Shown one piece after another: positions 41,127 to 57,277 of a stretch of DNA of 57,557 nucleotides. Position 1 is the stretch's first letter; the number at the start of each line of letters is the position of its first letter. Both the position numbers and the translations under genes were made by a program. The DNA is from Phycisphaerae bacterium (GTDB lineage Bacteria > Planctomycetota > Phycisphaerae > JAJVII01). The notes beneath the pieces were generated by a model that searched no databases, was not told the origin of the DNA, and was given only the letters and a program-made list of their open reading frames with translations. The stretch lies in contig JAJVII010000061.1 in the NCBI GenBank assembly GCA_022072085.1, positions 1 to 57,557 on the forward strand, read 5' to 3'.

Positions 41127-41306
41127 GGGGAATTCCTCCTGCCTGCTTCGTCACCCGCGACCGTCCGGCAGCGAACCGGTCGGCCACTTCTCCGTCGCCC
41201 GCGGCACATCCTGTGCGGCTGCGCCAACCGCCGGGCAACTCATCCGCGCAAAGAATGAATCTATGAGTGCAGGCCGGGCGGACTCCGTCCGCTTCGGCAA
41301 TCTTTT

Positions 41307-41335
41307 AACTTATCGGCACCTGCATCGCTTTGCAA
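41307..41335 (-). promoter_or_regulatory. Candidate promoter for the secretin gene
   Basis: On the minus strand TTGCAA (41335-41330) and TAAGTT (41312-41307) are separated by 17 bases, in a local AT-rich patch within the 257-base gap. It would give a leader of about 175 bases. Confidence 0.33.
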
Positions 41336-41383
41336 GGGCGAAAACGCCCGTCAGGGCCGATTTCGATACTGGCAACCCCGATC

Positions 41384-43243
41384 TTACGGGGTCGGATTGT
41401 TGATCCAATCCGGGCCCTTCGGCTGCGTCGGTTGTTCCGGACCGGGACCGGGCGGCATCTCGCCGGGACCCGGCTGCGGTGGCACGACGCCGGGGCCCGG
41501 TGCGGGCTCGACCGCCGCGGGGGCCTCTTCCCTGGGCGGCTGCTTCTGGGCCTCGTAACGGGCGTCAAGCTGGGCCACCTTCGGATCGCGCTCGTCGGCT
41601 GACAGCAGGCGGCGGACCAGGCGGCCCTGCGGGTCCAGGAACAGGACCTGGTAGTCCTCGCGCCCGACGCTGCCGCCGTCCAGCTTACGGACCTCCACCG
41701 GGATCAGCCCGGTCGCGTAGTCGATTTCCGCCTTGCGGGCGACTTCGCCGGTCTTGGGGTCGAAAATCGGCGACAGCCGCTTGTCGCCCACCGGCTCGCC
41801 GGGGGAGACGTTGCCGAAGGATTCGCGATTGAGCTGGCCCTGCTCGTACTTGTAGACGGTCATCTGGACCGGGTTGCTCAGGCTGGTGCTTCGGCTAAGG
41901 AAGATGTAGACGTCGCGTTCGATCCAGACCGGCGCGGACCAGGCCGACCAGGGCATCGGGATTTCGACCTGGTGGTCCTGGTCGCCCTTGGCCATCTGGA
42001 TGTTCAGCAGCGGATTGAGCAGCACGACCTGGATGCGATAGACGTAGGCGCGCCCGGGCCGGGCCGTCTCGTCGAAGGCGTGGATCCAGATGTGGTTGTC
42101 CTTGCTCGGGTCAGCCGGCGGCGGCGGATCGCCGGGCTTGGGAATGACCACGGGGACGCCGGGGCCCGGCACGGGAACGGCCCCGGGCACCGGATTCGGC
42201 TGGGGCCCCTGGGCCGGCGCGCCGCCCCCGTCCATGATGTCCGGGGGCCTGTTGGCGTCCGGCGGCTTGTTGCCGTCCGGCGTCGGCGGCGGCGGGTTAT
42301 TCGGGTTGAGTTCCGGGCCGTTGCCGCTGTTGGCTTCGGGGTGCTCCCTGATCAGACGCGCGATGGTCTCTTCCCACTCCTGCTTGATCCGGCGTTCGTC
42401 GGCCAGGGGCTTGGGCAGATCGAAGTAGAACTTCGGACGCCTGATCCACCCCTGGAAGCCGGGCTCGCCGATGCGGGCCAGCCGCTCCTTGAGCGTCTGG
42501 CTCCACTCGGTGAGCTTGGCCTGGTCGGCGTCGCCGGGGTAAGCCGGCAGCGGGAACAGGAGGTTGTTGCCGAAGGCGGCGACGTTGACGGGGGCGCTGA
42601 CGGGATTGCCGTTGGGGTCCACTTCCATCCGCTGGAGGCGGACGAGCAGGACGCTGGGCACCTGGTCGGCCAGGAACCGGGCCTCCTGGGCGACGAGGTT
42701 GTCGCGGAAGGCGCGGATCGAGTCATAGGGAACGCGGGCGCTGACGGCCACCCAGACGACGTCCTTGCCGTTCGCGTTCAGGTTGCGGCCCTGGTCGGTC
42801 AGCGGTCCGCTGCCCGGCGCCGGACCGCGGGGGGCGCCCAGCAGGGGGGCGGCTTTGCTCAGGTCAATGATCGTGGGGGTGTACACCTTGCCTTCAGCGA
42901 CGGCGATCGTCGGAGGGAGGGGGGCGCCGAGGTCGCCGCGGGCCAGCAGCGTCTGCACGCTCTGGGACGGACGACCGGGGTCGAAGTCGGCCAGCCCCGG
43001 CTTGGTGTCGATCACGTCGCCGACGGGCGGGGCGCCTTCCTTGATGCCCTCGGCCAGACGACCGGAGCGGGCCTTGAGGTCCTGCTCGATCTTGGCCGGG
43101 GTCGCGGACTGTCCCTGGACATCGACGGTGACCGAGTCGCCGAAGGCGTAGATCCAGCACAGGACCGCGGCGATGATGCACACCAGGGCCAGGAACAGCT
43201 TGCCGGCGTGCTGCTCGAAGAAGTTCATGGACTGAACGGCCAT
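41384..43243 (-). CDS. Inner-membrane protein with proline-rich linker (PilP-position protein of the secretin cluster)
   Basis: 619 residues from the ATG at 43243, set by AGGAGG upstream. One N-terminal span (LFLALVCIIAAVLCWIYAFG) with the rest periplasmic. After about 300 residues, partly helical (about 75-95), comes a proline/glycine-rich linker of about 75 residues (NNPPPPTPDGNKPPDANRPP... PVPGAVPVPGPGVPVVIPKPG). A beta domain follows, with RAYVYRIQVVLLNP, PVWIERDVYIFLS and REDYQVLFLDPQGRLVRR, and a second Pro-rich tail. It sits where PilP would be in a pilMNOPQ cluster, and PilP reaches the secretin through a flexible linker and a small beta domain; size and layout fit, but I see no clear homology. 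Product function is inferred from position. Confidence 0.7.
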   Translation of the reverse strand: MAVQSMNFFEQHAGKLFLALVCIIAAVLCWIYAFGDSVTVDVQGQSATPAKIEQDLKARSGRLAEGIKEGAPPVGDVIDTKPGLADFDPGRPSQSVQTLLARGDLGAPLPPTIAVAEGKVYTPTIIDLSKAAPLLGAPRGPAPGSGPLTDQGRNLNANGKDVVWVAVSARVPYDSIRAFRDNLVAQEARFLADQVPSVLLVRLQRMEVDPNGNPVSAPVNVAAFGNNLLFPLPAYPGDADQAKLTEWSQTLKERLARIGEPGFQGWIRRPKFYFDLPKPLADERRIKQEWEETIARLIREHPEANSGNGPELNPNNPPPPTPDGNKPPDANRPPDIMDGGGAPAQGPQPNPVPGAVPVPGPGVPVVIPKPGDPPPPADPSKDNHIWIHAFDETARPGRAYVYRIQVVLLNPLLNIQMAKGDQDHQVEIPMPWSAWSAPVWIERDVYIFLSRSTSLSNPVQMTVYKYEQGQLNRESFGNVSPGEPVGDKRLSPIFDPKTGEVARKAEIDYATGLIPVEVRKLDGGSVGREDYQVLFLDPQGRLVRRLLSADERDPKVAQLDARYEAQKQPPREEAPAAVEPAPGPGVVPPQPGPGEMPPGPGPEQPTQPKGPDWINNPTP

Positions 43244-43330
43244 CGGATCCTCCTGTTGGCTGCGCCGCGGGGTCTGCCTGCGGGTCGGTCGCCGACGTCG
43301 CTGCCCGGACAAAGAAGCTGCTTCAAGGCC

Positions 43331-44833
43331 TTAGATGCCGCCGGAACTGTTGCCGGCGGACGAAACCAGTCCGGGCCGGGTCGCCCTGATGCCCGGAGGA
43401 ATCAGGTCCTCGTAAAGCCCGATGACGGAAACATCGCTCGTCTGCTTGGACTCCAGTTTCCTGGTCTCGGCGTCCAGCAGCTTGGCGACGGCCTGATCGC
43501 GTTGCGAACCGGGGTCGCCGAGGTCAAGGTCCTTGCCGTCCTGGAGGACGCGCAACGCCAGAGCGGGGTGCTTGGTGAAGAAGCGAAGCCGTTTGATCTT
43601 GGCTTCCCGCTGCTTGTCGGGGCTGGAGCTGTCGCGCCAACTGGCAGGGCTCTTCATGAACAGGGCCTCGCACCGGCAGGTGACGGCCATCACCGGCGCG
43701 TCGCCGTAGTTGTAGACCATGGGCTGTCCGGGCGCAGCCGCCGGACCGGCGGCCGGGGGCCCAGAGGCGGCAGCGCCGCCGGCGACGATGGGCCCCTTGC
43801 GGCTGGGCAGATCCATGCGGATGTTCAGGATCGTGTGGAAGTTCTGCTGGCTGAGGCAACTCACCAGCAGCGCCAGCTTGCGGACGTCCATGACCACCTG
43901 GAAGCTGTAGTGAACGACGTCGACGCGGTTGTCGCTGACGTGGCCGGTCAGGACGGGCGTGACCGGCCCGCTGCCGCCGGTCTTGTCGGTCGCCGGGAAG
44001 TAGTCCCTCTCCACCGACGTCCAGACCAGTTCCTTGATCGGGGCGGCGGGGATGCGCAGCAGGCCATAGGTGCGCGGGTCGGAGTTGGCTTCGCGGATGG
44101 CGTCGATGAGGTCCTGCTGGATCCAGAGGTTGAGCTGGGCCTGCCACATCTGTTCGGGGGTCAGGCTCTGCAACGGATCGCCGACCTTCCAGTACATGTC
44201 GAAGCTGGTATCGCCGATGTACAGCGAATGCGTGCCGGCGAACTCGCTGACCTTGTTCTGGATGATCTGGTCCCTGCGCTTGTCCTCCTCCGCCTGGTCG
44301 GGCGGGGCGCCGGCGCCGCGCCGGTCCTTCAACTGCTGGATGGCCTGGGCGACCTGGTCCTGCCATTCCTTCGGGCCGGGCGGCGTGGTCGCGTTGACTG
44401 AGGTCTTGAGCTCGTCAATGGCCTTGATGTAGACGTCGCGCGGGGCGAACAGGTTGCTGGGGACGGGGAACTGGACCTCTCCCTTGCGGCCGGGAGCGGT
44501 CGGGATGCGGAAGGCGTCGCGCGGGACGTCGACGAACTTGCTGGCGTCGGGACTGTAGAGGCGCTTTTGCTGGGCGAAGTCCAGAGAGGTCTCGATGACC
44601 TGCTCCTGGGCGGCCTTGAACTTGTCCAGACCCACCCGGCTCCGCTCGATCCAGACCGGCGACTGGTAGTTGCGCAGGGCCCCGTCGACCTGACCCAGCA
44701 GGCTCTGCATCTGGAGCGTCTTGGCGCGGGCGTCGCTGTTGGCCGTCCAGGGATATGCAATCCCGCACAGCAACAGCACGACGACGGCGACGCAGACCAC
44801 GATGAAGAGGTTGTCCTGGATGAACTGCTTCAT
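43331..44833 (-). CDS. Inner-membrane protein in PilO position of the secretin cluster
   Basis: 500 residues from the ATG at 44833, which has AGGAG six bases upstream; the ATG at 44839 abuts that site and is less likely. One N-terminal span (NLFIVVCVAVVVLLLCGIAYPW) is followed by a helical, probably coiled-coil stretch (AKTLQMQSLLGQVDGALRNYQ..., FKAAQEQVIETSLDFAQQKRL). Further on come PEQMWQAQLNLWIQQDLIDAIREAN and a ferredoxin-like region (YSFQVVMDVRKLALLVSCL). One span, coiled coil and ferredoxin-like domain is the build of PilO. It is more than twice PilO's usual length. Located between PilMN and the PilP-position gene. Function inferred from build and order. Confidence 0.72.
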   Translation of the reverse strand: MKQFIQDNLFIVVCVAVVVLLLCGIAYPWTANSDARAKTLQMQSLLGQVDGALRNYQSPVWIERSRVGLDKFKAAQEQVIETSLDFAQQKRLYSPDASKFVDVPRDAFRIPTAPGRKGEVQFPVPSNLFAPRDVYIKAIDELKTSVNATTPPGPKEWQDQVAQAIQQLKDRRGAGAPPDQAEEDKRRDQIIQNKVSEFAGTHSLYIGDTSFDMYWKVGDPLQSLTPEQMWQAQLNLWIQQDLIDAIREANSDPRTYGLLRIPAAPIKELVWTSVERDYFPATDKTGGSGPVTPVLTGHVSDNRVDVVHYSFQVVMDVRKLALLVSCLSQQNFHTILNIRMDLPSRKGPIVAGGAAASGPPAAGPAAAPGQPMVYNYGDAPVMAVTCRCEALFMKSPASWRDSSSPDKQREAKIKRLRFFTKHPALALRVLQDGKDLDLGDPGSQRDQAVAKLLDAETRKLESKQTSDVSVIGLYEDLIPPGIRATRPGLVSSAGNSSGGI

Positions 44834-44869
44834 GAGCATCTCCTATGTCGCGCCGCGACGGCGGCTCTT

Positions 44870-44897
44870 AGAGCGTGTATGAAAACCTACACGCTCT
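44870..44897. repeat. Perfect hairpin at the end of the pilM gene
   Basis: AGAGCGTGTA (44870-44879) and TACACGCTCT (44888-44897) form a 10-bp perfect stem with an 8-base loop; the right arm includes the first base of the stop triplet TAA (44897-44899). The centre TGAAAACCTACAC resembles the ends of the foldback element at 49766-50049 (TCAAAACCTACGC). No T-run follows in the direction of transcription, so it looks like an inserted remnant or mRNA-processing hairpin rather than a terminator. Confidence 0.6.
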
Positions 44898-47017
44898 TAG
44901 CGGACGTTCGGCTTGGCGGCGCCTTCTGACTCGTTAGCGGGCCGCTTGCTGCCCGGAGCGCGGACCTTCAGGTCGAAGGCCACATGAAATCGCGTGTCCT
45001 TGTAGTTGGGCAGCCCGAGCACGTCTGTGGACCCGCCGGGCGCCGCCGGCTGGGCGGACGGAATGCCGGCCGGCGCGGGCCCGCCGCCGACGCCGGGCTC
45101 AGCCGGCTTGGGCCACTGCTCCTCGGGGAGCACGTAGTCGACCTTATCGACCACCCAGCGGTCGGTGGCCTTGTCCACCAGCGTGTAATCGTCCAGCAGC
45201 GGATCGTGGTCCTTGCCGGCCGGGTCGAACGCCGCGACGATCGCGCTGAGGAAGCCCTTCTTGAGTTCCTCGGGGGCCATGTTCTTGTTCTTGACATTCA
45301 TCGTTCCGGTGATGTTGACCCGCAGGTAGAACACCGGCTCGGTCCCCGGGGCAGCCGTGGGAACGGGCGTCGGGGTCGGCGTCACCGCCCTGGGCGACGA
45401 CGCGCCCTGGGAGCCGACCGTGGGCGGCGGCATGGGCGCCGGCGAATACTCCACGTCGACGTGCTCGAGCTGGAAGAAGGGGATCAGGGCCCGGTTGCTT
45501 TCCTGCCTCAGCCACGGTAGCAGATCCCTGCGCCAGTCCAGTTGGCGGGCCGCATTCTCCATCGCCATCGTGTCGCCGGGGTTGATCCCCTTGGACTGCG
45601 CGACCTGGCGGCGGAGCACGCCCTCCCAGTCCCGGGGCGCCGCCTTCTGGACGGCCGAGTAAACCAGCAGCATCGTCGGCCGATAGGCGATGATCTTCTT
45701 GATGTCGTTGATCTCGTCTTCCTCGTTGCCCTGAGCCCGTTTCAGTTCGCCGACCTGGGCTTGAATCTTCTTGTTGGCGGCCAGCACGCGCTGGGCGGTT
45801 TGATACGCCCCGTTCTGGTCTTCCAGGCTCTGGTTGATCTTGCGGTTGGCGCTGGCGGCCGAGTAGCTGGCGACGCCCAGACCCAGGGCCATCACCGCCG
45901 CAGACGCCGCGAACCAGGGCCGCTTGGCCCGCCAGTTGCGCTGCCGCACGATGGTGAACGGGAGCAGGTTGCTCTGGATAGGCGCCTGGCCCAGGCCCTG
46001 GAGCCCCAGCCCGTAGGCCACCCCGAAGCTCAGCACGTTCTCGGTGAACGCCGGGGCGTTGATCGTATCGGTCGGCTTGAGCCGATTGAACGCGTTCAGC
46101 CGCACCGTTTCGGTGTTCAGGTTCTGCTCGAGGTACTTCTGAAGCCCGGGCAGGCGGAACGCGTTGCCCAGACAGAGCACGCGGGTGATCTCCGCGTCGC
46201 GGTTGAGGCTGGTGTAGAAGCCGATCGACCGCTGCACCTCGCTGACCAGGTCGCCGAAGACCGGGCGCATGGCCACGAATATCTGCCGGGCGTACTTGCT
46301 GGTGGCGGCGGTGCGCTTGAGGTTCTCGGCCTTGGAGAAGCTCAGCTTGAAGGCCTTGACCAGCGATTCGGTGAAGTTGTTTCCGCCGGTCGGGATCGAA
46401 CGCAGCCAGATGCGGTCGCCGTCGCTGATGACCAGGTCGGTGTTTTCGGCGCCGACGTCGATGAGGATCGTCGCGCCCTTGTTGGCGACCTGCTGGTCGT
46501 AGGCCATCATGTTATACAGGGCCAGCGGGGCAAGCTGGACGATCTCGGCCTCGATGCCCTGCATGGTGAAGTTGGCCAGGTGCTGGAGCACCAGTTCCTT
46601 GCGCATCGCGAAGATGCCGACCTCCAGGTCCGGGCTGGTGGGGGACTCGAAGATCTGGTAGTCCCACTCCACCTCCTCGATGTCGAAGGGGATCTGCTGG
46701 ACGGCCTCGAACTGGACGATCTCGGGGACCCGCTTGCGCTCGACGGGGGGCAGCTTGATGAAGCGGGCGAAACTGGACTGGCCTGGGACCGAGAGGGCGA
46801 CCTTGCAGCCGGTGATGTCGTTGCGGGAGAGGAACTTGTCCAGGGCGTTGCGGACGAGCTGGTCGGCGTCGGCGTCGGGCTGGCTGAGAATCTTCGGGTG
46901 CTCGATGATGTCGAAGTGCGTGACCTCGACGTTGCCTTCCGGGCTGAGTTGGACCCTCAGGGCCTTGAGGGCACATTGTCCGACGTCGATCCCCCAGACC
47001 GCGCTGGTGCTTGCCAT
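44897..47017 (-). CDS. pilM: PilM-PilN fusion protein of a type IV pilus-like system
   Basis: 706 residues from the ATG at 47017 (GGGAG upstream); a TTG two codons earlier is less likely. Residues 1-350 are an actin-like PilM: AVWGIDVGQCALKALRV, LPPVERKRVPEIVQFEAVQQIPFDIEEVEWDY, ILIDVGAENTDLVISDG, and SIPTGGNNFTESL. Near 360-385 a membrane span follows (RPWFAASAAVMALGLGVASYSA) with the coiled-coil KINQSLEDQNGAYQTAQRVLAANKKIQAQVGELKRAQ, the layout of PilN. The last 200 residues are Pro-rich with a PilN/O-like beta-alpha part (VFYLRVNITGTMNV). PilM binds PilN's cytoplasmic tail in other bacteria; here the two are joined. The gene heads the operon leading to the secretin. Confidence 0.9.
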   Translation of the reverse strand: MASTSAVWGIDVGQCALKALRVQLSPEGNVEVTHFDIIEHPKILSQPDADADQLVRNALDKFLSRNDITGCKVALSVPGQSSFARFIKLPPVERKRVPEIVQFEAVQQIPFDIEEVEWDYQIFESPTSPDLEVGIFAMRKELVLQHLANFTMQGIEAEIVQLAPLALYNMMAYDQQVANKGATILIDVGAENTDLVISDGDRIWLRSIPTGGNNFTESLVKAFKLSFSKAENLKRTAATSKYARQIFVAMRPVFGDLVSEVQRSIGFYTSLNRDAEITRVLCLGNAFRLPGLQKYLEQNLNTETVRLNAFNRLKPTDTINAPAFTENVLSFGVAYGLGLQGLGQAPIQSNLLPFTIVRQRNWRAKRPWFAASAAVMALGLGVASYSAASANRKINQSLEDQNGAYQTAQRVLAANKKIQAQVGELKRAQGNEEDEINDIKKIIAYRPTMLLVYSAVQKAAPRDWEGVLRRQVAQSKGINPGDTMAMENAARQLDWRRDLLPWLRQESNRALIPFFQLEHVDVEYSPAPMPPPTVGSQGASSPRAVTPTPTPVPTAAPGTEPVFYLRVNITGTMNVKNKNMAPEELKKGFLSAIVAAFDPAGKDHDPLLDDYTLVDKATDRWVVDKVDYVLPEEQWPKPAEPGVGGGPAPAGIPSAQPAAPGGSTDVLGLPNYKDTRFHVAFDLKVRAPGSKRPANESEGAAKPNVR

Positions 47018-47383
47018 ATTCAACTCCCGTTGTCAAAGCCGCGCGGGCGCGACGCAACTCATAGTGCCGCGCCCCACTTGCCGCCGGTCTGCCGTATTCT
47101 AACGATCCCCATGCCCTGGCCGCAAGAACGCCATCGCCCTGTTGAGGCGACGGTTTCCCGGGCAACGGGACCGCTGTCGCCGTTTCCCTGAACTCGCCGA
47201 AGCGGGGCTGGGCCTTCGCGAGAATGATGAATGGATAAGGACGTCGGACATTTCAGGTCACGGCCAGCGCCCCGCAACCTACTCTGCCTTCAATATCGTC
47301 GGGGATCGCGGGCCGGTCAAGGCCAATTTGTGTGCGCAACTCCTGTTGCGGCAACGAACGGTCAGCCGATAAACTGCCACAGG
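47018..47383. other. Divergent intergenic region between the pilus-type operon and a lipoprotein gene
   Basis: 366 bases with no credible gene. It carries the candidate pilM promoter (47096-47125) and the leader of the lipoprotein gene. A GGTTTCCCGGGCAACGGGACC stretch near 47150 is locally self-complementary. I recognise nothing more. Confidence 0.6.
47096..47125 (-). promoter_or_regulatory. Candidate promoter for the pilM operon
   Basis: On the minus strand TTGCGG (47125-47120), an 18-base spacer, then TAGAAT (47101-47096), about 80 bases before the pilM ATG. The -10 box is a near-consensus match; the -35 box matches four of six. Confidence 0.4.
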
Positions 47384-47845
47384 ATGAGACCCGCGCTGAC
47401 CATGATCCTGGCGCCGCTGGCGGCGCTGTCGCTGCTGCTCCTCGGCGGCTGTGGCCCGTTCTCCTCGCGCAGTCAGGCCATTCCCCTGCCCGACGCCAAC
47501 ATCACCGACACCGGCGAGGCCGGCGTGCACAGCCTCACCCTCAAGTACGCCCTGCCCAAGACCGACGGCGAGCCGGTCATCGTCGCCTGGCAGCGGATCA
47601 CCATCGAGGACGAGCAGGGACGCTTCTGCCCGGTCCGCAGCATCAACTACGGCAAGGGCGACAGCGGCTACTGGACCAGCATCACCTTCATGTTCCCCCC
47701 CGACGCCAGGCGGATCGGCGCCAGCCTCGTCCTGCGCGTCGACGCCCGCGACTACCCCCTGGACGCCCTGCTGACGCGCATCGCCCCGACGCAATGGCAG
47801 ATCGACTACGGCGTCAAGCTCCCCCCGCCCAAGGAACAGAAATAG
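47384..47845 (+). CDS. Small lipoprotein of unknown function
   Basis: 153 residues from the ATG at 47384; another ATG six codons in (47402) could also serve, and neither has a clear ribosome site. The signal ILAPLAALSLLLLGGC ends in the lipobox LGGC, so the protein should be lipid-anchored. The mature part is beta-rich: GVHSLTLKYALPKTDGEPVIVAWQRITIEDEQGRF, and a YWTSITFMFPPDARRIGASLVLRVDAR segment. I do not recognise a family. It is divergent from the pilM operon and convergent with the EAL gene, with about 110 bases between. Confidence 0.75.
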   Translation: MRPALTMILAPLAALSLLLLGGCGPFSSRSQAIPLPDANITDTGEAGVHSLTLKYALPKTDGEPVIVAWQRITIEDEQGRFCPVRSINYGKGDSGYWTSITFMFPPDARRIGASLVLRVDARDYPLDALLTRIAPTQWQIDYGVKLPPPKEQK

Positions 47846-47953
47846 CAGGCCCGTCCTCGCCACGAAGACAAAGCCTTCCTCAAGATTCAGTTCGCCGCTG
47901 AGGCGCGGAGGGAAGGGACTTGGATAAGAATCTGCGGGAGAAACGGCGCCGCG

Positions 47954-49171
47954 CTACCCCTGCCGTTTCGTTGCCGGGGGCCTGCTGACGCCAGCCAGAT
48001 GCGTCGCCGACGGTCCGACCGCCGCCAACTGCGCGATCCGCGCCAGCCACGGACGCTGCGCCCGACGCGGCGGCAGCACCGGCGAAGGCTCCGCCAGCAG
48101 CCGCCCCTGCACCAGCCCGATGCCGGCCGACCGGCAGAACAGCAGTTGCTGGGGGCTCTCCACCCTCTCGGCGATCACGGTCATGTTCCGGTCGCCGGCC
48201 AGTTGCAGCAGGTTGTCCACGAGTTGCCCGCCCTCCAGCCGCGAGGAGTGGCCCTGCCCGATCAACTCCAGGTCGAGCTTGAGGTAGTCGGCCTCCAGGT
48301 TGGCCACCCGCAGCAGGCCCGCGGGCCCGCCGCCCAGGTCGTCGATGCAGACCCCCGCCCCCTGGCTGCGGACGTAGTCCAGCACCCAGCGAAGATGCCC
48401 CTCGTCGGCTGCCTGCCAGGGCCCGTGTCGCCCGGCCGTCTCGGCCCCGCTGACCTCCAGCACCAGCCGGTCCGCCGGCACGCCGGCCGCCTGGGCGGCC
48501 TCGAACATCGGACCCAGGCAGTGCGGCGGATCGTACACCGTCTCGGGCAGGAAGTTCACGAACAGCCGCGCCGACGCCGGCAGCTCGCCGCCCGGCAGCG
48601 ACCCCACCGCCGCCAGCCGCGCCCGCCGGTCCAGTTCGTCCAGCAGCGCCATCCGCCGGGCCGCCGCCAGCATCGTCACCGGGCCGATCGTCCGCCCGTC
48701 GCGGTCCTCGCCGCGGACCAGCGCCTCGTACCCGAACGCCCGGGCCGTCTGCAACTCGACGATCGGCTGATAGTGGAAGCCCAGCCTGCCGACCTGGAGC
48801 AGGTCGGCCAGCCACGGCTCGCGATGGCGCGCCAGCACCGCCGCCAGCGAGTCGGCCGAGAAGCAGCGGCTGACCAGTTCCCAGTCCAGCCCCTGACTGC
48901 ATCGGCGGCGGTCGGCCTGGTCCAGCAGCAGGACGCGGCAGTCGCGGGCCTCGAGGCTGCTCAGGGCGTCAGCCGCCCGCGCCAGACGCGGCATCAGCGA
49001 GTCGTCGTCCAGGGCCTCGACCCAGATCAGTTGCCGCCCGCTGTCGCGTCCCCAGGGCCCCAGCTGCGCCCGCAGCCGGAGGGTCACGTGCTCAGCCGGA
49101 CACCAGATCAGGGCGGCCTGTGGTGAATTCCATTCGGGGGGTCGGACCGGCGGCGGGCACTCAGCGGCCAT
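47954..49171 (-). CDS. EAL-domain protein (c-di-GMP phosphodiesterase candidate)
   Basis: 405 residues from the ATG at 49171 (GGAGAGAATT before it). The N-terminal 130 residues are unrecognised, without membrane spans. The EAL domain spans about 145-380. Catalytic and metal residues can be followed: Glu in GYEALVRG, Asn in FVNFLPETVYD, Glu in LVLEVSGAE, the Asp pair in IDDLGGG, Lys in YLKLDLEL and Glu in VIAERVES, then VQGRLLAEP. The loop 6 DDFGTG motif is DDLGGG, a change that lowers but need not abolish activity. EAL enzymes break c-di-GMP to pGpG, controlling attachment and pili. No GGDEF domain is present. It lies about 1 kb from the pilus-type cluster. Confidence 0.88.
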   Translation of the reverse strand: MAAECPPPVRPPEWNSPQAALIWCPAEHVTLRLRAQLGPWGRDSGRQLIWVEALDDDSLMPRLARAADALSSLEARDCRVLLLDQADRRRCSQGLDWELVSRCFSADSLAAVLARHREPWLADLLQVGRLGFHYQPIVELQTARAFGYEALVRGEDRDGRTIGPVTMLAAARRMALLDELDRRARLAAVGSLPGGELPASARLFVNFLPETVYDPPHCLGPMFEAAQAAGVPADRLVLEVSGAETAGRHGPWQAADEGHLRWVLDYVRSQGAGVCIDDLGGGPAGLLRVANLEADYLKLDLELIGQGHSSRLEGGQLVDNLLQLAGDRNMTVIAERVESPQQLLFCRSAGIGLVQGRLLAEPSPVLPPRRAQRPWLARIAQLAAVGPSATHLAGVSRPPATKRQG

Positions 49172-49285
49172 AATTCTCTCCACGACGTCTGGACATCCCT
49201 TGCATCGGCAGCAACCCTCGCCGACTTGCGTTAGTCCCCTCTCCCCGCAGTGCCGAGTGCCAAGTTCCAAGTGCGAATCGCGTAC

Positions 49286-50212: not shown

Positions 50213-52996
50213 TCATTCCCCGGCCTGGCGTCGGCGGGGCTTCTTCCGCGTCGCCGTCAAAGGGGCGGTCAGTTTCTCGTAGAGGGCGAAGAGGAACTCG
50301 ACGCGCTGGCGTTCGCTGGTGAAGGGCTGGGCGCGGTAGCAGGCATCGACGGCCCGATCCAGGACCGCGTGGGCCTTGACCAGGTCCGGGGGCATGGCCA
50401 GCGGGTCGTAGAGGTCCGCCAGCGTGGATTCGGGGAACTGCTTGCGGGCGTCCAGAACCCCCTGGGCCGCCTGCTCGACCCGGGCCTTCTGTTTGTCGGT
50501 CACCTCCCCCGGCCAGGGGAAGTTGTTGTAGACGAGCTTGTTGGAATAGCGGTAGCGGGATTCCAGCCGCCCGCAGACCTGCCGCACCCAGGCCATGTGC
50601 ATTTCGGACGACAGGACGCCGAAATGGTAGAGGCCAGCGTCGGGAAGCACGAACACCAGATCGCTGACCAGCGTCCTGGGGTCCATGAATCCAATTGGGA
50701 TGTACCTTCGACGCTCGGAGGATACTTTGGGAATCACCAGGAACGTATTGCCCGGCATATTCTCAACGTGAAATCGTGTCGGAAACTCGGCCAGTTTGCG
50801 TGTGGGCTCGCTGTCCCGTTTGAGTCTGAAATCTCTGACGGCCTCGACACGCTTCAGGCATTCCGGCATCTGGCGCAATCGCGAGGGGCCGCATTCGCCC
50901 AGCCAGAGACACCAACGCTGCCCGCCATTGAGAAACTCCTGCGAACCTATCCACGGGCGGAAGAAGACCTTTGCCTCTGGTTCTTTCGCGAGGAAGGTGT
51001 CGCGTTCCTGCGGTGTAAAAAGGTAGTTCCCCCCATCAATAGGCTTATTGCCGATTCCAATGGCAGGCGAGTCACACAGGGGCTTGGAGCGGTTGGTGAT
51101 TGCCCGGTTTTCGCCTTCAATGAGATAGGGACTGATGTTGCGAACGGTACTCACTGTCGCGTGTTGCGGATCCGTCTCGTAGTCGTAGATACGCTTGTCA
51201 GAGCAGTCGCCCAGTCCCCACCCGACTATCACGACATGCACATGTGCCTTGCGGCGGGCTTCGCTCGTCCATGCAAAAGTCCGGTGAGCGAAATGAATCT
51301 TCACTCCGCGCCGGAACAGTTCGGACCAGAGAACACCAACCTGTTCGCCCTGCGTGACGGAGTTGGTGGAAACAAAAGCCACCCGGACACCCGTGCCAAC
51401 GATGTATTCGGCCGCCTTGAAATACCAGCCCGTCACGTAGTCAAGCAGGCCGCGTCCCCGAACGCCCTGTGCAACAGCATCCATGTCCTCCTTCTGCTTG
51501 TCCGTCTGGAACTTGGCGCCCACGAACGGCGGGTTGCCCAGGACGTAGGAGCACTCGGCGGCCGGGAGCAGGTCGTTCCAGTCGATGCGCAGGGCATTCC
51601 CCGGGCGGATGTGCGGGGAACTGGTCAGCGGGACGCTGGGGCGGACCTGGCTGAAACGCTTGAACAACTCCTGGTTCATCTGGTGGTCCATCAGCCACAG
51701 GGCCACCTCGGCGATACGGACCGCCCATTCCTCGATCTCGATGCCGTAGAACTGCGAAACGGTGATGCGGCACTCGGCCCGGACGTCGCCCTCGTTGATC
51801 TTCGCCCCGAACCGGGCGTCCAGCACGTCCATCTCCAGCCGCCGTAACTCGCGGTAGCTGATGACCAGGAAGTTGCCGCAGCCGCAGGCGGGGTCGAGGA
51901 ACCGCAGGCCGCCGAGCCTGCGGTGGAAGGTTTCGAGCTTTCGCTTGTCGTTCCTGACGGACTCGAACTCGGCCCGCAGGTCGTCCAGGAACAGCGAGCG
52001 GATGAGCTTGAGGATGTCCCGCTCGCTGGTGTAGTGGGCCCCGATCTGGCGGCGCTGCCGCGGCTGCATGATCGACTGGAACAGCGAGCCGAAGATGGCC
52101 GGCGATATCCGCTCCCAGTGGAAGGAGCAGCAGGTGGTCAGGGCGGTCCGCATGGGGGTGTCGAACTGGGGGAAGGCCAGCCCCTCGGCGAACAGGTCGC
52201 CGTTGACGTAAGGCAGGTGGGAGAGGTCCTCGTCCAGGTTCGTCGGGCGGGCGTCCTCGGGCGTGTTGAGGATGGCGAAGAACCGGGCCAACTGCGCGCC
52301 GAGGTCCGAGCCGTCCGGCCGGGTCTGCCGCTCGACGAACAGGCGGAAGGTGTCCGGCTCGAAGATGCCGGTGTCGTCGGCGAACAGGCAGAACAGGATG
52401 CGGACCATGAACCGCTGGAGGTCGTGCCCGACGTAGCCGACCTCTTCGAGGCGGTCGTGGACGTTGGCCAGCAGTTCGGCCGCCTTGATGTTGGCCGGGT
52501 CTTCGGGATCAAGCTGGCGCGTCTCGTAGCCGGCGATGAAAGCGAAATGGCGAACGTGCCTGGGGAAATCGGCCAGGTTGAACTGGACGGTGGCGCGGGC
52601 GGGGTCTTCCGGCTCCAGGTCGTGCAGGGCGATGCGGGCAAAATCGGAAACCAGGATATAACGGGGGGCCTCTTCTTCGCGCCCCTCATTGATCAGCTCC
52701 TGGATGTACCCGATGGCCTGCGTGTGCGCCTGGGCAAGGTCTTTGCCGAGGGACTTGTGCTCGGCAATGAGCCGGCCTTTCCAGAACAGGTCGATGAAAT
52801 CGGTGTCGCCCTTGAGATTCTTTACGGGCTCCTCGAACGTGGCCACGGTCCGACGGCGAATGCCGAAGACTTCAAAGAACTCGTTCCAGAAAGTCTGGGC
52901 CTCGGCCCGCTCGCGCGCGGCGCCGGCCCACCCCTTTGAGAAGTTGATTGCACGCGTACGGATTTCAGTCCAGGCGAGCGGCATATAGGGCTTCAT
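50213..52996 (-). CDS. MmeI-like (type IIL) restriction-modification enzyme
   Basis: 927 residues from the ATG at 52996 (MKPYMPLAWTEIRTRAINFSKGW); MmeI is 919. One protein both cuts and methylates DNA. The N-terminal nuclease shows the exact D-x9-ExK spacing of MmeI: Asp69, then Glu79-His-Lys81 (FIDLFWKGRLIAEHKS). A helical spacer follows. The N6-adenine methyltransferase carries motif I LDPACGCGNFL (about 365) and motif IV GNPPFVGAKF (about 485). The target-recognition region lies about 600-850, ending in RYRYSNKLVYNNFPWP, a conserved C-terminal segment. No partner gene is adjacent. The target-recognition part (about 50690-51450) is visibly richer in A/T than its surroundings, suggesting exchange or recent acquisition. 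A repeat-rich zone lies downstream. Confidence 0.9.
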   Translation of the reverse strand: MKPYMPLAWTEIRTRAINFSKGWAGAARERAEAQTFWNEFFEVFGIRRRTVATFEEPVKNLKGDTDFIDLFWKGRLIAEHKSLGKDLAQAHTQAIGYIQELINEGREEEAPRYILVSDFARIALHDLEPEDPARATVQFNLADFPRHVRHFAFIAGYETRQLDPEDPANIKAAELLANVHDRLEEVGYVGHDLQRFMVRILFCLFADDTGIFEPDTFRLFVERQTRPDGSDLGAQLARFFAILNTPEDARPTNLDEDLSHLPYVNGDLFAEGLAFPQFDTPMRTALTTCCSFHWERISPAIFGSLFQSIMQPRQRRQIGAHYTSERDILKLIRSLFLDDLRAEFESVRNDKRKLETFHRRLGGLRFLDPACGCGNFLVISYRELRRLEMDVLDARFGAKINEGDVRAECRITVSQFYGIEIEEWAVRIAEVALWLMDHQMNQELFKRFSQVRPSVPLTSSPHIRPGNALRIDWNDLLPAAECSYVLGNPPFVGAKFQTDKQKEDMDAVAQGVRGRGLLDYVTGWYFKAAEYIVGTGVRVAFVSTNSVTQGEQVGVLWSELFRRGVKIHFAHRTFAWTSEARRKAHVHVVIVGWGLGDCSDKRIYDYETDPQHATVSTVRNISPYLIEGENRAITNRSKPLCDSPAIGIGNKPIDGGNYLFTPQERDTFLAKEPEAKVFFRPWIGSQEFLNGGQRWCLWLGECGPSRLRQMPECLKRVEAVRDFRLKRDSEPTRKLAEFPTRFHVENMPGNTFLVIPKVSSERRRYIPIGFMDPRTLVSDLVFVLPDAGLYHFGVLSSEMHMAWVRQVCGRLESRYRYSNKLVYNNFPWPGEVTDKQKARVEQAAQGVLDARKQFPESTLADLYDPLAMPPDLVKAHAVLDRAVDACYRAQPFTSERQRVEFLFALYEKLTAPLTATRKKPRRRQAGE

Positions 52997-53095
52997 TCTA
53001 ATTGCCCGGGATAAGGGCAACAAGCCGCGCGTCGGAACAGGAAAGGGGCAGGCTGCGTTCCTGGAAGCAGCCTCTCGCCTCTCCTGCACACGAGA

Positions 53096-53125
53096 AAAGC
53101 CCACGGCCGGGCGGCCGTGGGCTTT
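53096..53125 (-). terminator. Terminator of the secreted DUF4139 gene
   Basis: AAAGCCCACGGCC (53096-53108) and GGCCGTGGGCTTT (53113-53125) make a 13-bp perfect stem with a 4-base loop, followed on the minus strand by TTTTCTC. It lies 29 bases past the stop of the DUF4139 gene. Confidence 0.88.
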
Positions 53126-53153: not shown

Positions 53154-54590
53154 TCAGTAAGTGTAGAACAGCGTGTAGGCCAGCTTGCTCTTGGCGTTGG
53201 CCTTGACCGGGACGAGGTACTTCAGCGTGAATGCGTCCTTGTTGGTGTGCTCAGCCGGCTTGCCGTCGAGGGCCTCGGCCTCGACGCGGCAGTTGGCGCC
53301 GACGCGGACCATCACGCGGACCTCGATGTCCACGTCCTTGTGGTTGCGCAGCTCGACCTCGAAGCCCTGGCGGCTCCAGCGCTGGCCGCTCTCGGCCTTG
53401 ACCTGCTTGGTCTCCGCGACGATGTCGAACGCGTCGCCGATGTAGAGGGTGATCTTCTCATCCTTGGGCGTGTGGTCGATCTGGTCCTCGCCCACGAACT
53501 CGAGGCTGCCGTCGGCGTCGTCCTTCTTGAACACCCGCACCTTGCCCTTGGGCAGGGCGATGCCCAGGCCGTTCTCCTTCTTGTTGTCAAACTCGACCTT
53601 CACGTTCACCTTGGTCGCGCCCTGGTAAGGCGTGTGCTCGTAGAACTTGGTCACCGGCACGCCCAGCACCGGCTCGATCAGCTCGATCTGCTTGACCTGG
53701 TTGTCGTTGATCGTGGTCGGGCGCGGCAGGGTGTACATGTGATACTCGGCGAAGCTCTTCTCCTCGAAGCCGCCCGGCGCGGCCGCCGCCGCCTTGCGGG
53801 CGTATTCGCGGCGCTCGTAGACCGGCTGGGGGGTCACGCGGCGCACGTCGCCGGCGATCAGCTTGAGCTGGGCGTTCTCGTACCGCGCCCCGCTGTTGTT
53901 GCTGATCGTCACCCAGCCGTTGGCGTCGACCTTCGTGTCGTCGCCGTTGAGGACGGCCGTGTAGTCGGCCTGCCAGCCCAGGCTGTTGGCCATGTAGGCC
54001 ACCTTCACGAGCTGCTTGCCGCCGTTGTCGGACAGCGTCTTCCAGACCAGCGTCGGGCGCGTCAGCAGCCCGCCGGGCAGGGCCCCGAGCTGGAGGTCCT
54101 GGATGCTCCCGCGATCGACCAGCCGCACGTTGCCGTCGATCAGCAGCGTGAGCATGTTACCCTGGTAACTCTGGAGCACGCCCTTGACGGTCGTCGCCTT
54201 GTCGGTGCCGCTGCCCTTGACGACCAGCGTGATTTCCTTGTCGAGGTACTTCTCCAGGATCTTCTCCGGGCTGACCAGGTCATACTCGTAGTTCTGGTCG
54301 AGCACCTGCACGCCCTTGGGGTCGGTCAGGCTGGTGAAGTGAACGCTCGTCGGATCGATGGTCTTGGCGACGCCGACGAACTTCACCTCGCCCATGCCCT
54401 TGGGCAGGTCCATCACCCGCCGCTCCTTGATCACCGCGAACCCGCCGCTGTAGACCGTCAGGCCCACGCCGGCCCCCAGGTCTTTCTCGGGCATCGGCTT
54501 GGGGTTCTCCGTCGCCGGCTGGGCCCACACGGGGCCGGCCGCCAGCACGACCGCGACCGTTGCGATCAGCATCATCTTGGCCAGTCTCAT
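53154..54590 (-). CDS. Secreted DUF4139-domain protein
   Basis: 478 residues with a signal peptide (MRLAKMMLIATVAVVLAAGPVWAQ), so periplasmic or secreted. The body is a DUF4139-type beta protein: SGARYENAQLKLIAGDVRRV, TLPRPTTINDNQVKQIE, SLEFVGEDQIDHTPKDE and YIGDAFDIVAETKQ. The domain is also found in the mucoidy-inhibitor MuiA group; its biochemical role is not established. It is a close paralogue of the C-terminal two-thirds of the upstream protein, sharing VAKTIDPTSVHF and QNYEYDLV as well. The upstream gene is a FecR-DUF4139 fusion ahead of which stands an ECF sigma gene; spacing is 79 bases. A strong terminator follows, so this is the last gene of the unit. Confidence 0.88.
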   Translation of the reverse strand: MRLAKMMLIATVAVVLAAGPVWAQPATENPKPMPEKDLGAGVGLTVYSGGFAVIKERRVMDLPKGMGEVKFVGVAKTIDPTSVHFTSLTDPKGVQVLDQNYEYDLVSPEKILEKYLDKEITLVVKGSGTDKATTVKGVLQSYQGNMLTLLIDGNVRLVDRGSIQDLQLGALPGGLLTRPTLVWKTLSDNGGKQLVKVAYMANSLGWQADYTAVLNGDDTKVDANGWVTISNNSGARYENAQLKLIAGDVRRVTPQPVYERREYARKAAAAAPGGFEEKSFAEYHMYTLPRPTTINDNQVKQIELIEPVLGVPVTKFYEHTPYQGATKVNVKVEFDNKKENGLGIALPKGKVRVFKKDDADGSLEFVGEDQIDHTPKDEKITLYIGDAFDIVAETKQVKAESGQRWSRQGFEVELRNHKDVDIEVRVMVRVGANCRVEAEALDGKPAEHTNKDAFTLKYLVPVKANAKSKLAYTLFYTY

Positions 54591-54669
54591 CGTCTTCTCC
54601 TCGGTTAGGGGTCTGGGTATTTCCGGCTTGTCCCTGTCAACATCCCACGGCCGTCGCCGGCCGGGCGTC

Positions 54670-56700
54670 TTACCACGTCTGATAGATCGTCCAGGCCAGC
54701 GTCGCTTTGCCGTCGGCCTTCACCGGGACGCGATACTCCAGCGTGAACGCGTCCTTGGCCGTGTGCGTCGCCGCCGCGCCGTCAACGGTCTCGGCCTCGA
54801 CCGTGAAGTTGGCCGGCACGCGGACCAGCACGCGGACCTCGATGTCCGCGTCCTTGTGGTTGCGCAGCTCGGCCTGGTAACTGTTGCGGGCCCAGCGCTG
54901 GCCGCTGCTGGCCTTGGTCTGCTTCGTCTCGGCGGCGATGTCGAACGCGTCGCCGATGTAAAGCTCCAGCCGCTCGTCCCTGGGCGTGTGGTCGATGTCG
55001 TCCTCGCCGATGAACTCGAGCGAGCCGTCGGCCGGATCGCTCTTGAACATCCGCACCGTCCCCTTGGGCAGCGGCATGCCCAGGCCGATCCGCTTCTCGT
55101 TCTTGAACTCGACCTTCACGTTCACCTTGTCGGCGCCGGGGCCGGCGGGATACTCGTAGAACCGGGTCACCGGCACGGCCGCGACCGGCTCGAACATCTC
55201 GATCTGCTTGACCTGGTTGTCGTTGATCGTCGTCGGCCGGGGGAGCGTGTACATGTGATACTCGCCGAAGCTCTTCTCGACGAAGCCCTGCGCGCCGTTC
55301 GCCTTGTCCTCCTTGAGCTTCTCCGCCGCGGCCAGTTCCGGCACGGGCACGTAGGGGACGATCCGCCGCACGTCGCCGGCGATCAGCTTCAGTTGCGCGT
55401 TCTCGTACCGCGCCCCCGACTCGTTGCTCACCGTCACCCAGGCGGCCAGGTCGAGCTTCGTGTCGTCGCCGTTCAGCGTCGCGATGTAGTTGGCCCGCCA
55501 GCTCAGGGCGTCGGCCATGTAGCTCATCTTCACCAGGTGCTTGCCGGCCCGCTCGCTATGCGTCCGCCAGCGGAGCGTCGGGCGGGTGACCAGGCCTTCG
55601 GGCAGCGCGCCCAGCCGCAGGTCGCGGATGTCGGCGGCCGAGACGATCCGCGTCGCCCCCTCCACCTCCAGCGTCAGGGCCTCGGCGTCGGCGCTCTTGA
55701 GCACGCCGGCGACTTCCGTCGCCCCGTCGGCCCCGCCGCCGGCCAGGGCAACCGTGATCGACCGGTCGATGAATTTCTCGATCACCTTGGCGGCGTCCAC
55801 CAGGTCGTATTCGTAGTTCTGCTCCAGCACCTGCACGCCCGCGGGGTCCGAGAGCGACACGAAGTGCACGCTGGTCGGGTCGATGGTCTTGGCGACGCCG
55901 GTGAACTGCGTCACCGACTCGCCGGCCGCCAGGTCCAGCACCCGCCGCTCCTTCACCGTCGCGAAGCTGTCGTAGATGGTCACGCCGACGCCGGGGCCCT
56001 GGTCCTTTTCCAGCAGCGTCGGGGCCGACTTGGCCTCAGCCAGCGCCACCGCGCCGCCGGCCACGTCCAGGCGGCCCTGCGGGTTGCTCACCTGCACCGC
56101 CCCCTCGAAGACCGCGACGACCACCGCGTCGGACGCCGTGGCGAAGATGCTCTCCCGCTGACCGGGGCGGCGGTCGAAGACCGACGCGTCGACCATGAAG
56201 CTCGTGCCCACCGCCCGAACGTCGCAGTTGGGCGTGCGGACGACGAAGGGCAGGTCCGACTTGGCCACATCGAAACTCGCCCGCCCGCTGATCACCTGCA
56301 CCGCCGCCGAACCGGCGGCCCGGCGGGCCAGGCGGTAGCGCGTCCCGGCCGACAGGGTCATCCGCGACCCGTCGGCCAGCGCGACCGGGCCGGCCGCAGC
56401 CGCCGTCCGCTCGCTGCCGTCGCCCAGGACGATCGCCGTCGCCGTCGTGGGCGTCACGCCCGCGGGCCGATGGGCCATCCACCACACACCCGCGGCGATC
56501 AGCACCGCTGCAGCCGCCGCCAGTCCCGCCAGCCGCAACCGCCACAGCCGGCCGGCCGGGCTCGCCGACGCCTGCCGGGCCGAGTCGATGATCGCCCGGG
56601 CGCCCGCCGGGTCGGCCTGCTCGTTCAGCCACTGCCGCACCAGCCGCTCGGCGGCGTCCTGCTGTCGGGATGTGGGCTTGTTGTCCATTTCGCTATTCAC
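54670..56700 (-). CDS. FecR-like anti-sigma regulator fused to DUF4139
   Basis: 676 residues. The GTG at 56700 lies within the last codons of the sigma gene; an ATG at 56688 (MDNKPTSRQQ) with AAGGTG before it is the alternative. Residues 1-50 are a helical cytoplasmic part (RLVRQWLNEQADPAGARAIID), where anti-sigma contacts would be. One membrane span lies at about 55-76 (LRLAGLAAAAAVLIAAGVWWM). A FecR domain follows (about 90-225): LADGSRMTLSAGTRYRL, a GRASFDVAKSDLPFVVRTPNCDVRAVGTSFMVDA block, and VFEGAVQVSNPQGRL. From about 235 onward it is a DUF4139 domain near-identical in many blocks to the next gene's product. FecR proteins pass outside signals to an ECF sigma factor. The DUF4139 extension is unusual and probably the sensor. 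Co-transcribed with the sigma gene. Confidence 0.88.
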   Translation of the reverse strand: MNSEMDNKPTSRQQDAAERLVRQWLNEQADPAGARAIIDSARQASASPAGRLWRLRLAGLAAAAAVLIAAGVWWMAHRPAGVTPTTATAIVLGDGSERTAAAAGPVALADGSRMTLSAGTRYRLARRAAGSAAVQVISGRASFDVAKSDLPFVVRTPNCDVRAVGTSFMVDASVFDRRPGQRESIFATASDAVVVAVFEGAVQVSNPQGRLDVAGGAVALAEAKSAPTLLEKDQGPGVGVTIYDSFATVKERRVLDLAAGESVTQFTGVAKTIDPTSVHFVSLSDPAGVQVLEQNYEYDLVDAAKVIEKFIDRSITVALAGGGADGATEVAGVLKSADAEALTLEVEGATRIVSAADIRDLRLGALPEGLVTRPTLRWRTHSERAGKHLVKMSYMADALSWRANYIATLNGDDTKLDLAAWVTVSNESGARYENAQLKLIAGDVRRIVPYVPVPELAAAEKLKEDKANGAQGFVEKSFGEYHMYTLPRPTTINDNQVKQIEMFEPVAAVPVTRFYEYPAGPGADKVNVKVEFKNEKRIGLGMPLPKGTVRMFKSDPADGSLEFIGEDDIDHTPRDERLELYIGDAFDIAAETKQTKASSGQRWARNSYQAELRNHKDADIEVRVLVRVPANFTVEAETVDGAAATHTAKDAFTLEYRVPVKADGKATLAWTIYQTW

Positions 56701-57277
56701 CTTGACCCTCGCTCAGGTCGTCAGCGAGCATCTCAGCCAGCCGGGCCCGGGCCCGGTGGGTCAGCACCGCCACGTGGGCGGGGGTCAGGTCCAGGGCGTC
56801 GGCCACCTCGACCGCCGTCTGGCCCAGCCCCCGCAGCGCCATCACCGCCCGCTGAAGCGCGGGCAGGCGGGCCATCGCCCCGGCGACGCGGGCCGCCAGT
56901 TCCGCCGACATCGCCCGCCGCTCGGGCTCGTCGGCCGCGTCGCCGGCGATCGTGTCGGCCAGGGCGACGTTCGTGCCGGGCAGCTCGCCGTTGAGGCTGG
57001 CCAGCTCCCGCCGACGCGTGCGGGCGTTGATGCAGCCGTTGCCGACGGCCCGGAACAGCAGCTTGCGCCCGTCAGCCGCCAGGTCGTAGCCGCTCGCGGG
57101 CAGCCGAGCCCGCGTCAGCAACCGGACCAGGGCGTCGTGAACGACGTCCTCGGGGTCCGGCCCGCCGCGCGCCCCCGCCAGCAGGGCCCGCGCGTAGCCC
57201 AGCGCCGGCGGCACGGCGTCAGCCATCCATCCGCCGGGGGCCTTGGTTTCGCTCCTGACTGTCGCGTCCTGACCCAC
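56693..57277 (-). CDS. ECF-type RNA polymerase sigma factor
   Basis: 194 residues from a GTG at 57277, which has GGAGG five bases upstream; an in-frame ATG at 57226 (MADAVPPALG) is possible, while a start at 57415 lacks a ribosome site and would pass through repeat-like DNA. Region 2 is visible in DPEDVVHDALVRLLTRARLP and LFRAVGNGCINARTRRRE. Region 4 is the C-terminal helix-turn-helix: LPALQRAVMALRGLGQTAVEVADALDLTPAHVAVLTHRARARLAEML. It directs polymerase to a small set of promoters when freed from its anti-sigma partner. The next gene, overlapping by eight bases, encodes the FecR-type membrane protein, so the pair is almost certainly functional. Confidence 0.9.
   Translation of the reverse strand: MGQDATVRSETKAPGGWMADAVPPALGYARALLAGARGGPDPEDVVHDALVRLLTRARLPASGYDLAADGRKLLFRAVGNGCINARTRRRELASLNGELPGTNVALADTIAGDAADEPERRAMSAELAARVAGAMARLPALQRAVMALRGLGQTAVEVADALDLTPAHVAVLTHRARARLAEMLADDLSEGQGE

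What the first reader, a model, noticed from the sequence alone, without database searches (positions are those of the whole stretch)
53154..57277. ECF sigma, FecR-DUF4139 fusion and free DUF4139 paralogue: a possible new cell-surface signalling module
Seen: an ECF sigma gene overlaps a gene whose product has an anti-sigma-like cytoplasmic part, one membrane span, a FecR domain and a C-terminal DUF4139 domain. The next gene encodes a secreted protein of DUF4139 alone, sharing long identical blocks (for example TLPRPTTINDNQVKQIE). Known: FecR proteins usually sense a TonB-dependent receptor, and none is here. Inferred: the fused DUF4139 is the sensor, and the free paralogue competes with it, binds it or shares its ligand, so that one protein is both part of the signal and made under its control. 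DUF4139 occurs in MuiA-type mucoidy inhibitors, suggesting a link to surface polysaccharide.
Basis: partly seen in the sequence, partly recalled or inferred. Interest (0 to 1): 0.78.

Follow-up and report, generated by a model that had tools for sequence, protein, structure and literature searches.

The report
Anti-sigma factor wearing its effector's domain
A three-gene bacterial signalling unit, in which the membrane inhibitor of a gene-switching sigma factor carries outside the cell a copy of the very secreted protein encoded next to it, recurs across Planctomycetota and seems to have been assembled at least twice, which suggests that the secreted protein, or whatever it binds, is the signal.

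Summary
An ECF sigma gene (57277-56693) overlaps a gene for a cytoplasmic part, one membrane span, FecR and DUF4140-DUF4139 (56700-54670). A secreted stand-alone paralogue follows (54590-53154; 62% identical).

The FecR version was seen only here, but the arrangement is not rare. About 20 loci in seven other families, four of them outside the class, have ECF sigma, membrane anti-sigma-DUF4139 fusion, free DUF4139. Most use a zinc-finger (zf-HC2) inhibitor domain. Every fusion has an ECF gene upstream; 0 of 143 unfused relatives do. All 16 fusions with enough downstream sequence are followed by a free copy.

The window's fused copy is sister to its own free copy, and a single origin of all fusions is rejected (AU p=1.7e-4), so the window looks like an independent assembly. 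In the zinc-finger modules a specific ECF-type promoter stands before the sigma gene and almost nowhere else, so the operon is probably its own main target.

The genome has no TonB-receptor plug domain. Both copies hold an Sm/Hfq-like domain, a possible contact. Signal, ligand and binding are untested. The MuiA link is not supported.

The parts
56693..57277 (-). ECF sigma factor gene (194 aa, GTG start)
   Evidence: Sigma70_r4_2 and TIGR02937 above cut-offs; GGAGG at 57287-57283
54670..56700 (-). membrane anti-sigma-like fusion: cytoplasmic helices, membrane span, FecR, DUF4140, Sm-like domain, DUF4139 (676 aa)
   Evidence: Pfam, AlphaFold2 model, overlap with sigma gene
56476..56700 (-). putative anti-sigma part: helices 11-27, 31-44, 48-76, the last including the membrane span 57-75
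   Evidence: model, hydropathy; sigma binding inferred
56092..56388 (-). FecR domain, with Gly165-Thr166 kept at 56208-56203
   Evidence: Pfam FecR E=8e-12; motif aligned with the solved structure 4m0n; position of GT
55816..55983 (-). DUF4140 part of the fusion (residues 240-295, below Pfam cut-off)
55591..55809 (-). Sm/Hfq-like domain between DUF4140 and DUF4139 (residues 298-370)
   Evidence: Z 10.9, 1.4 A over 66 residues to Hfq; LSM matched by 21 of 60 family members
54694..55533 (-). DUF4139 domain of the fusion
53154..54590 (-). free secreted DUF4140-Sm-DUF4139 protein (478 aa, signal peptide about residues 1-23)
   Evidence: Pfam; 62% identical to the fused body

Best explanation
It is a self-contained ECF sigma / membrane anti-sigma operon in which the anti-sigma senses through a tethered copy of the operon's own secreted effector. 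At rest the cytoplasmic part of the fusion holds the sigma factor. Outside the membrane the fused DUF4140-Sm-DUF4139 meets the same ligand or assembly surface as the free protein. The change of state passes through FecR and the membrane span and frees the sigma, most likely by stepwise proteolysis as in other FecR- and RsgI-type inhibitors. The sigma then transcribes mainly its own operon, making more inhibitor and more free protein, and the free protein takes up the ligand or joins the tethered copy, closing a feedback loop. Shown: domain order, conserved linkage, absence of a TonB plug domain, separate ancestry of the window's fusion, promoter conservation in relatives. Inferred: sigma binding, proteolysis, ligand sharing or co-assembly, and autoregulation in the window itself.
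For: Linkage: 18 of 19 listed fusions have an ECF gene directly upstream by HMM, the nineteenth (L159) has the sigma C-terminus in a broken contig, and L273 is a twentieth fusion with sigma; 0 of 143 unfused relatives have one. A free copy follows in 16 of 16 fusions with enough sequence. The inhibitor domain is exchangeable and the same order was built separately in the window. A promoter RATC[CT]-N14/15-GCGTCTAA precedes the module sigma genes; of 12 genome-wide core matches 10 stand before a module sigma gene, and 6 genomes of the same family without a detected module have none. No TonB Plug domain in the genome. Precedent: RsgI anti-sigma factors carry carbohydrate-binding or enzyme-like outer domains and SigI factors autoregulate (PMC4711584).
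Against: No binding, proteolysis or regulation has been measured. The window's own promoter was not found and its upstream region ends after 280 nt. DUF4139 has no known ligand. The window's cytoplasmic part has no Pfam anti-sigma match.
Confidence: 0.6

Rival explanations
1. The free protein is itself the signal. It binds the fused copy directly, perhaps through the Sm-like or DUF4139 surface, so the system gauges how much effector is present or properly assembled rather than an outside ligand.
For: A free copy always sits next to the fusion; both copies hold an Sm-like domain, a fold known for ring assembly.
Against: No interface was predicted or measured. In the other modules the two copies are only 36-48% identical, so simple mixed assembly is not assured.
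Confidence: 0.2
2. The free copy is a plain downstream effector and the fused copy senses something unrelated, such as envelope stress; the shared domain reflects a duplication without direct functional coupling.
For: Tandem duplication easily makes such neighbours; tandem DUF4139 genes without sigma genes also exist (L171, L154).
Against: The arrangement recurs with different inhibitor domains and appears to have arisen separately.
Confidence: 0.15
3. The window's module is not a separate assembly: it descends from the common zinc-finger module, with FecR and sigma replaced and the two DUF4139 copies made alike by gene conversion.
For: Conversion makes paralogues of one genome look like sisters; gene order is the same as in the other modules.
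Against: Identity varies along the whole body (23-87% in 30-codon windows) with no near-identical tract; the sigma lies apart from the main module sigmas.
Confidence: 0.15

Closest known systems
SigI/RsgI biomass-sensing systems of Clostridium thermocellum (PMC4711584)
   Same: One-span anti-sigma factor with an outer domain of the kind found in the secreted proteins it controls; sigma and anti-sigma genes adjacent; autoregulation.
   Different: SigI is not an ECF factor; the outer domains bind polysaccharide or are enzyme-like; the output proteins are encoded elsewhere rather than in the same operon.
FecI/FecR/FecA surface signalling (PMC9249621)
   Same: ECF sigma next to a one-span inhibitor with a FecR domain, Gly-Thr bond kept.
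   Different: No TonB Plug domain in the genome; an extra C-terminal sensor domain; the next gene is a secreted DUF4139 protein, not a receptor.
Class I anti-sigma factors with zinc motif Hx3Cx2C (PMC7406223)
   Same: The related modules in other genomes begin with such a domain.
   Different: The window's cytoplasmic part lacks the motif and is FecR-type; the DUF4139 outer domain was not found described.
MuiA family mucoidy inhibitor (TIGR02231)
   Same: Contains DUF4140 and DUF4139.
   Different: 15.2 bits against a cut-off of 112.6; here an Sm-like domain lies between the two DUFs, where MuiA has, from memory, a coiled coil.
RsiV receptor for lysozyme controlling SigV (PMC4183432)
   Same: An ECF anti-sigma factor whose outer domain directly binds its signal protein.
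   Different: There the ligand is a host enzyme; here the candidate partner is a paralogue in the same operon and binding is untested.

Membership tests
ECF sigma factors | match to the ECF model TIGR02937 above its cut-off | tested here: met
   49.5 bits against 42.9; Sigma70_r4_2 28.5 against 25.7
ECF sigma factors | directs transcription from a -35/-10 promoter, usually its own | tested here: inconclusive
   conserved promoter in related modules, none recognised in the window
Membrane anti-sigma factors | gene adjacent to the sigma gene, N-terminal helical cytoplasmic part, one membrane span | tested here: met
   8-nt overlap, helices and span
Membrane anti-sigma factors | binds and inhibits the sigma factor | not testable with these tools
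   needs experiment or complex prediction
FecIRA surface signalling | FecR domain in the inhibitor | tested here: met
   Pfam FecR E=8e-12
FecIRA surface signalling | partner TonB-dependent receptor | tested here: not met
   no Plug domain in the 97% complete genome; the same search rings in E. coli, Caulobacter and Bacteroides controls
MuiA (TIGR02231) | match to the family model above cut-off | tested here: not met
   15.2 (fusion) and 13.8 (free) bits against 112.6
ECF / anti-sigma-DUF4139 / free DUF4139 module as seen in related genomes | three genes in this order on one strand, DUF4139 in both the fusion and the following secreted protein | tested here: met
ECF / anti-sigma-DUF4139 / free DUF4139 module as seen in related genomes | common descent of the fused DUF4139 | tested here: not met
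   one clade rejected, p-AU 1.65e-4
Sm/LSM/Hfq fold | Sm-like barrel with N-terminal helix | tested here: met
   Z 10.9, 1.4 A over 66 residues to Hfq; Pfam LSM in 21 of 60 members, best 1.3e-5; ring formation and RNA binding not tested

The most novel reading that the evidence does not exclude
A new kind of effector gauge: an anti-sigma factor that co-assembles, through a secreted Sm/Hfq-like domain and DUF4139, with the effector encoded beside it, so that the sigma factor reads the amount or assembly state of its own product; an arrangement evolved more than once.
Probability: 0.2. Interest if true: 0.85.

Novelty: new variant of a known kind. Interest (0 to 1): 0.62.

Why it matters
Few anti-sigma factors have a known signal. 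Here the operon itself names the candidate: the secreted twin of the sensor, or its ligand. The same order appears to have been built at least twice with unrelated inhibitor domains, which argues that pairing a sensor with an effector of the same family is selected for. It offers a first testable role for DUF4140-DUF4139 proteins, which occur as stand-alone secreted proteins in many phyla without known function, and it places an Sm-like fold in a secreted protein, where that fold is rarely considered.

Tried and rejected
Fusion as assembly artefact: rejected, the arrangement recurs in many contigs and genomes.

FecR-DUF4139 as a widespread fusion: not found. Of 571 relatives in species genomes the best 80 align only from about residue 165 or later, and FecR-part relatives in the class carry no DUF4139.

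Promoter like that of the relatives upstream of the window sigma: not found; comparison with the sigma of the same-family genome G001, whose contig ends inside the gene, gave nothing.

Gene conversion as source of the sister relation: no near-identical tract; an old complete conversion is not excluded.

Solved relative of the DUF4139 body: none by sequence. Foldseek's first hits, oligosaccharyltransferase Ost1/ribophorin I and GPI transamidase, have E about 1e-4 but TM 0.10-0.17 and were not used.

Literature: no held paper names DUF4139 together with a sigma factor. The NAR ECF reclassification paper and the 2012 Planctomycetes signalling survey are not held, so an earlier listing of this gene context cannot be excluded.

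hhalign of the Sm region against Hfq gave no output and was dropped. Neighbours of orphan free genes show only synteny within lineages.

Full report
What is there. The sigma gene (57277-56693) matches Sigma70_r4_2 and the ECF superfamily model above their cut-offs. It overlaps by 8 nt a gene for a 676-residue protein (56700-54670) with about 56 cytoplasmic residues, one membrane span (57-75), FecR (106-203), a weak DUF4140 match (240-295) and DUF4139 (390-669). Some 80 nt further lies a 478-residue protein with a signal peptide and the same DUF4140-DUF4139 body (54590-53154). The two bodies are 62% identical and are the only DUF4139 genes found in this 5.49 Mb genome. The window is an entire contig.

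How common it is. The free form is a large family: 571 encoding stretches in species-level genomes, almost all stand-alone proteins of about 450-500 residues from many phyla. Among them, L100 and L060 showed an ECF gene, a zf-HC2-membrane-DUF4139 fusion and a free DUF4139 gene in a row. I then searched 397 genomes of the class and 392 of the phylum and fetched about 80 regions. The same order, or its sigma-fusion part where contigs end, appeared in genomes of seven families besides the window's, four of them outside its class.

Linkage. Of 19 listed fusions, 18 have an ECF gene directly upstream by HMM; the other (L159) shows the sigma C-terminus in a broken contig. The one apparent exception among unfused genes, L273, is itself a zinc-finger fusion behind a sigma gene. 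Of the remaining unfused relatives with at least 600 nt upstream, 0 of 143 have an ECF gene within 1 kb; that number includes the free copies inside modules, which lie behind their fusion. All 16 fusions with enough downstream sequence are followed by a free copy. The selection of regions favoured tandem loci, so these numbers describe linkage, not frequency.

The inhibitor half is exchangeable. Most fusions begin with a short domain bearing Hx3Cx2C, predicted as a confident helical bundle (L144 model), then a membrane span and the DUF4139 body. L146, L163 and L151 lack the zinc motif. Only the window has FecR between membrane and DUF4139 (alignment). FecR-like relatives in the class are not fused to DUF4139.

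Separate assembly. In trees of the DUF4139 body the window's fused and free copies are sisters with full support, while 14 other fused copies lie elsewhere. Holding all fused copies together costs 94.9 log-likelihood units (p-AU 1.65e-4). The window sigma groups with ECFs of other contexts rather than with the main module sigmas; that comparison set was chosen by similarity to it, so this weighs less. No near-identical tract suggests recent gene conversion. I therefore read the window as a second construction of the same arrangement.

Autoregulation in relatives. Upstream of the sigma gene in the zinc-finger modules stands a bipartite element, RATC[CT]-N14/15-GCGTCTAA, of ECF promoter type. 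Its core occurs 12 times in 11 module-bearing genomes of one family; ten sites stand before a module sigma gene (one at a contig edge), one before a secreted protein in G158 (L272), and one has no clear gene (L261). Six genomes of the same family without a detected module have none; the reversed control pattern gave 2 matches in all 17 genomes. The sigma thus appears to serve mainly its own operon. The window's sigma is of another lineage and its promoter could not be identified.

Structure. The AlphaFold2 model of the window fusion (mean pLDDT 80.5, DUF4139 body mostly over 90) shows N-terminal helices, a FecR beta domain of moderate confidence and the DUF4140-DUF4139 body. Between DUF4140 and DUF4139 is an Sm-like domain (residues 298-370; Z 10.9, 1.4 A over 66 residues to Hfq). 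Sequence agrees: Pfam LSM is matched by 21 of 60 family members, best 1.3e-5, and the profile weakly hits an archaeal Lsm protein. A shared fold shows no function, but it is a candidate contact between the two copies. The FecR domain keeps Gly165-Thr166 in its conserved motif; FecR and FoxR cleave themselves at a Gly-Thr bond (PMC9249621). That the bonds correspond is my inference.

What it works like. The nearest precedent is SigI/RsgI, where the anti-sigma's outer domain is of the kind found in the enzymes controlled (PMC4711584). It is not a FecIRA system, because no TonB plug domain was found in the genome, and not MuiA. The mechanism I favour is a tethered effector-type sensor that shares ligand or assembly surface with the free protein and releases the sigma by proteolysis. 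Binding, proteolysis and ligand are inferred. No held paper links DUF4139 with a sigma factor, but two key ECF surveys are not held.

Noticed in passing
55809-55591 (fusion) and the matching part of 54590-53154: An Sm/Hfq-like domain embedded in a secreted protein family; LSM matched by 21 of 60 relatives from several phyla. Ring formation and ligand unknown.
   Followed up: partly
L272 (G158 contig C163, about 3393): The module-type promoter stands before a gene for another secreted protein (MRRITGLLLACVIVFGISPLRA...), the one extra candidate member of the regulon.
   Followed up: no
L096/L173 (sigma L096:7760-8353) and L306 (5929-6477): Unfused DUF4139 genes with an ECF gene downstream instead of upstream; the L096 sigma has GGAAC-N16-GCGTCTAA before it.
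   Followed up: partly
L314 (own genome, contig C52): A second ECF gene followed by a FecR-type one-span protein without DUF4139, in the same genome that has no TonB plug domain: a possible source of the window's inhibitor half.
   Followed up: partly
L146 and L151: The fusion is followed by two different free DUF4139 genes, which fall in two separate tree branches shared between families f6 and f12.
   Followed up: partly
model m5f5859182a3f, DUF4140-DUF4139 body: Foldseek's first hits are eukaryotic oligosaccharyltransferase Ost1/ribophorin I and GPI transamidase (E about 1e-4, TM only 0.10-0.17); unresolved.
   Followed up: no
50213-53104: MmeI-type restriction-modification protein, all five MmeI domains present.
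   Followed up: partly
38568-49270: Run of genes on the - strand with a secretin, a PilM-like protein and an EAL domain protein: a probable type II secretion or type IV pilus cluster.
   Followed up: no
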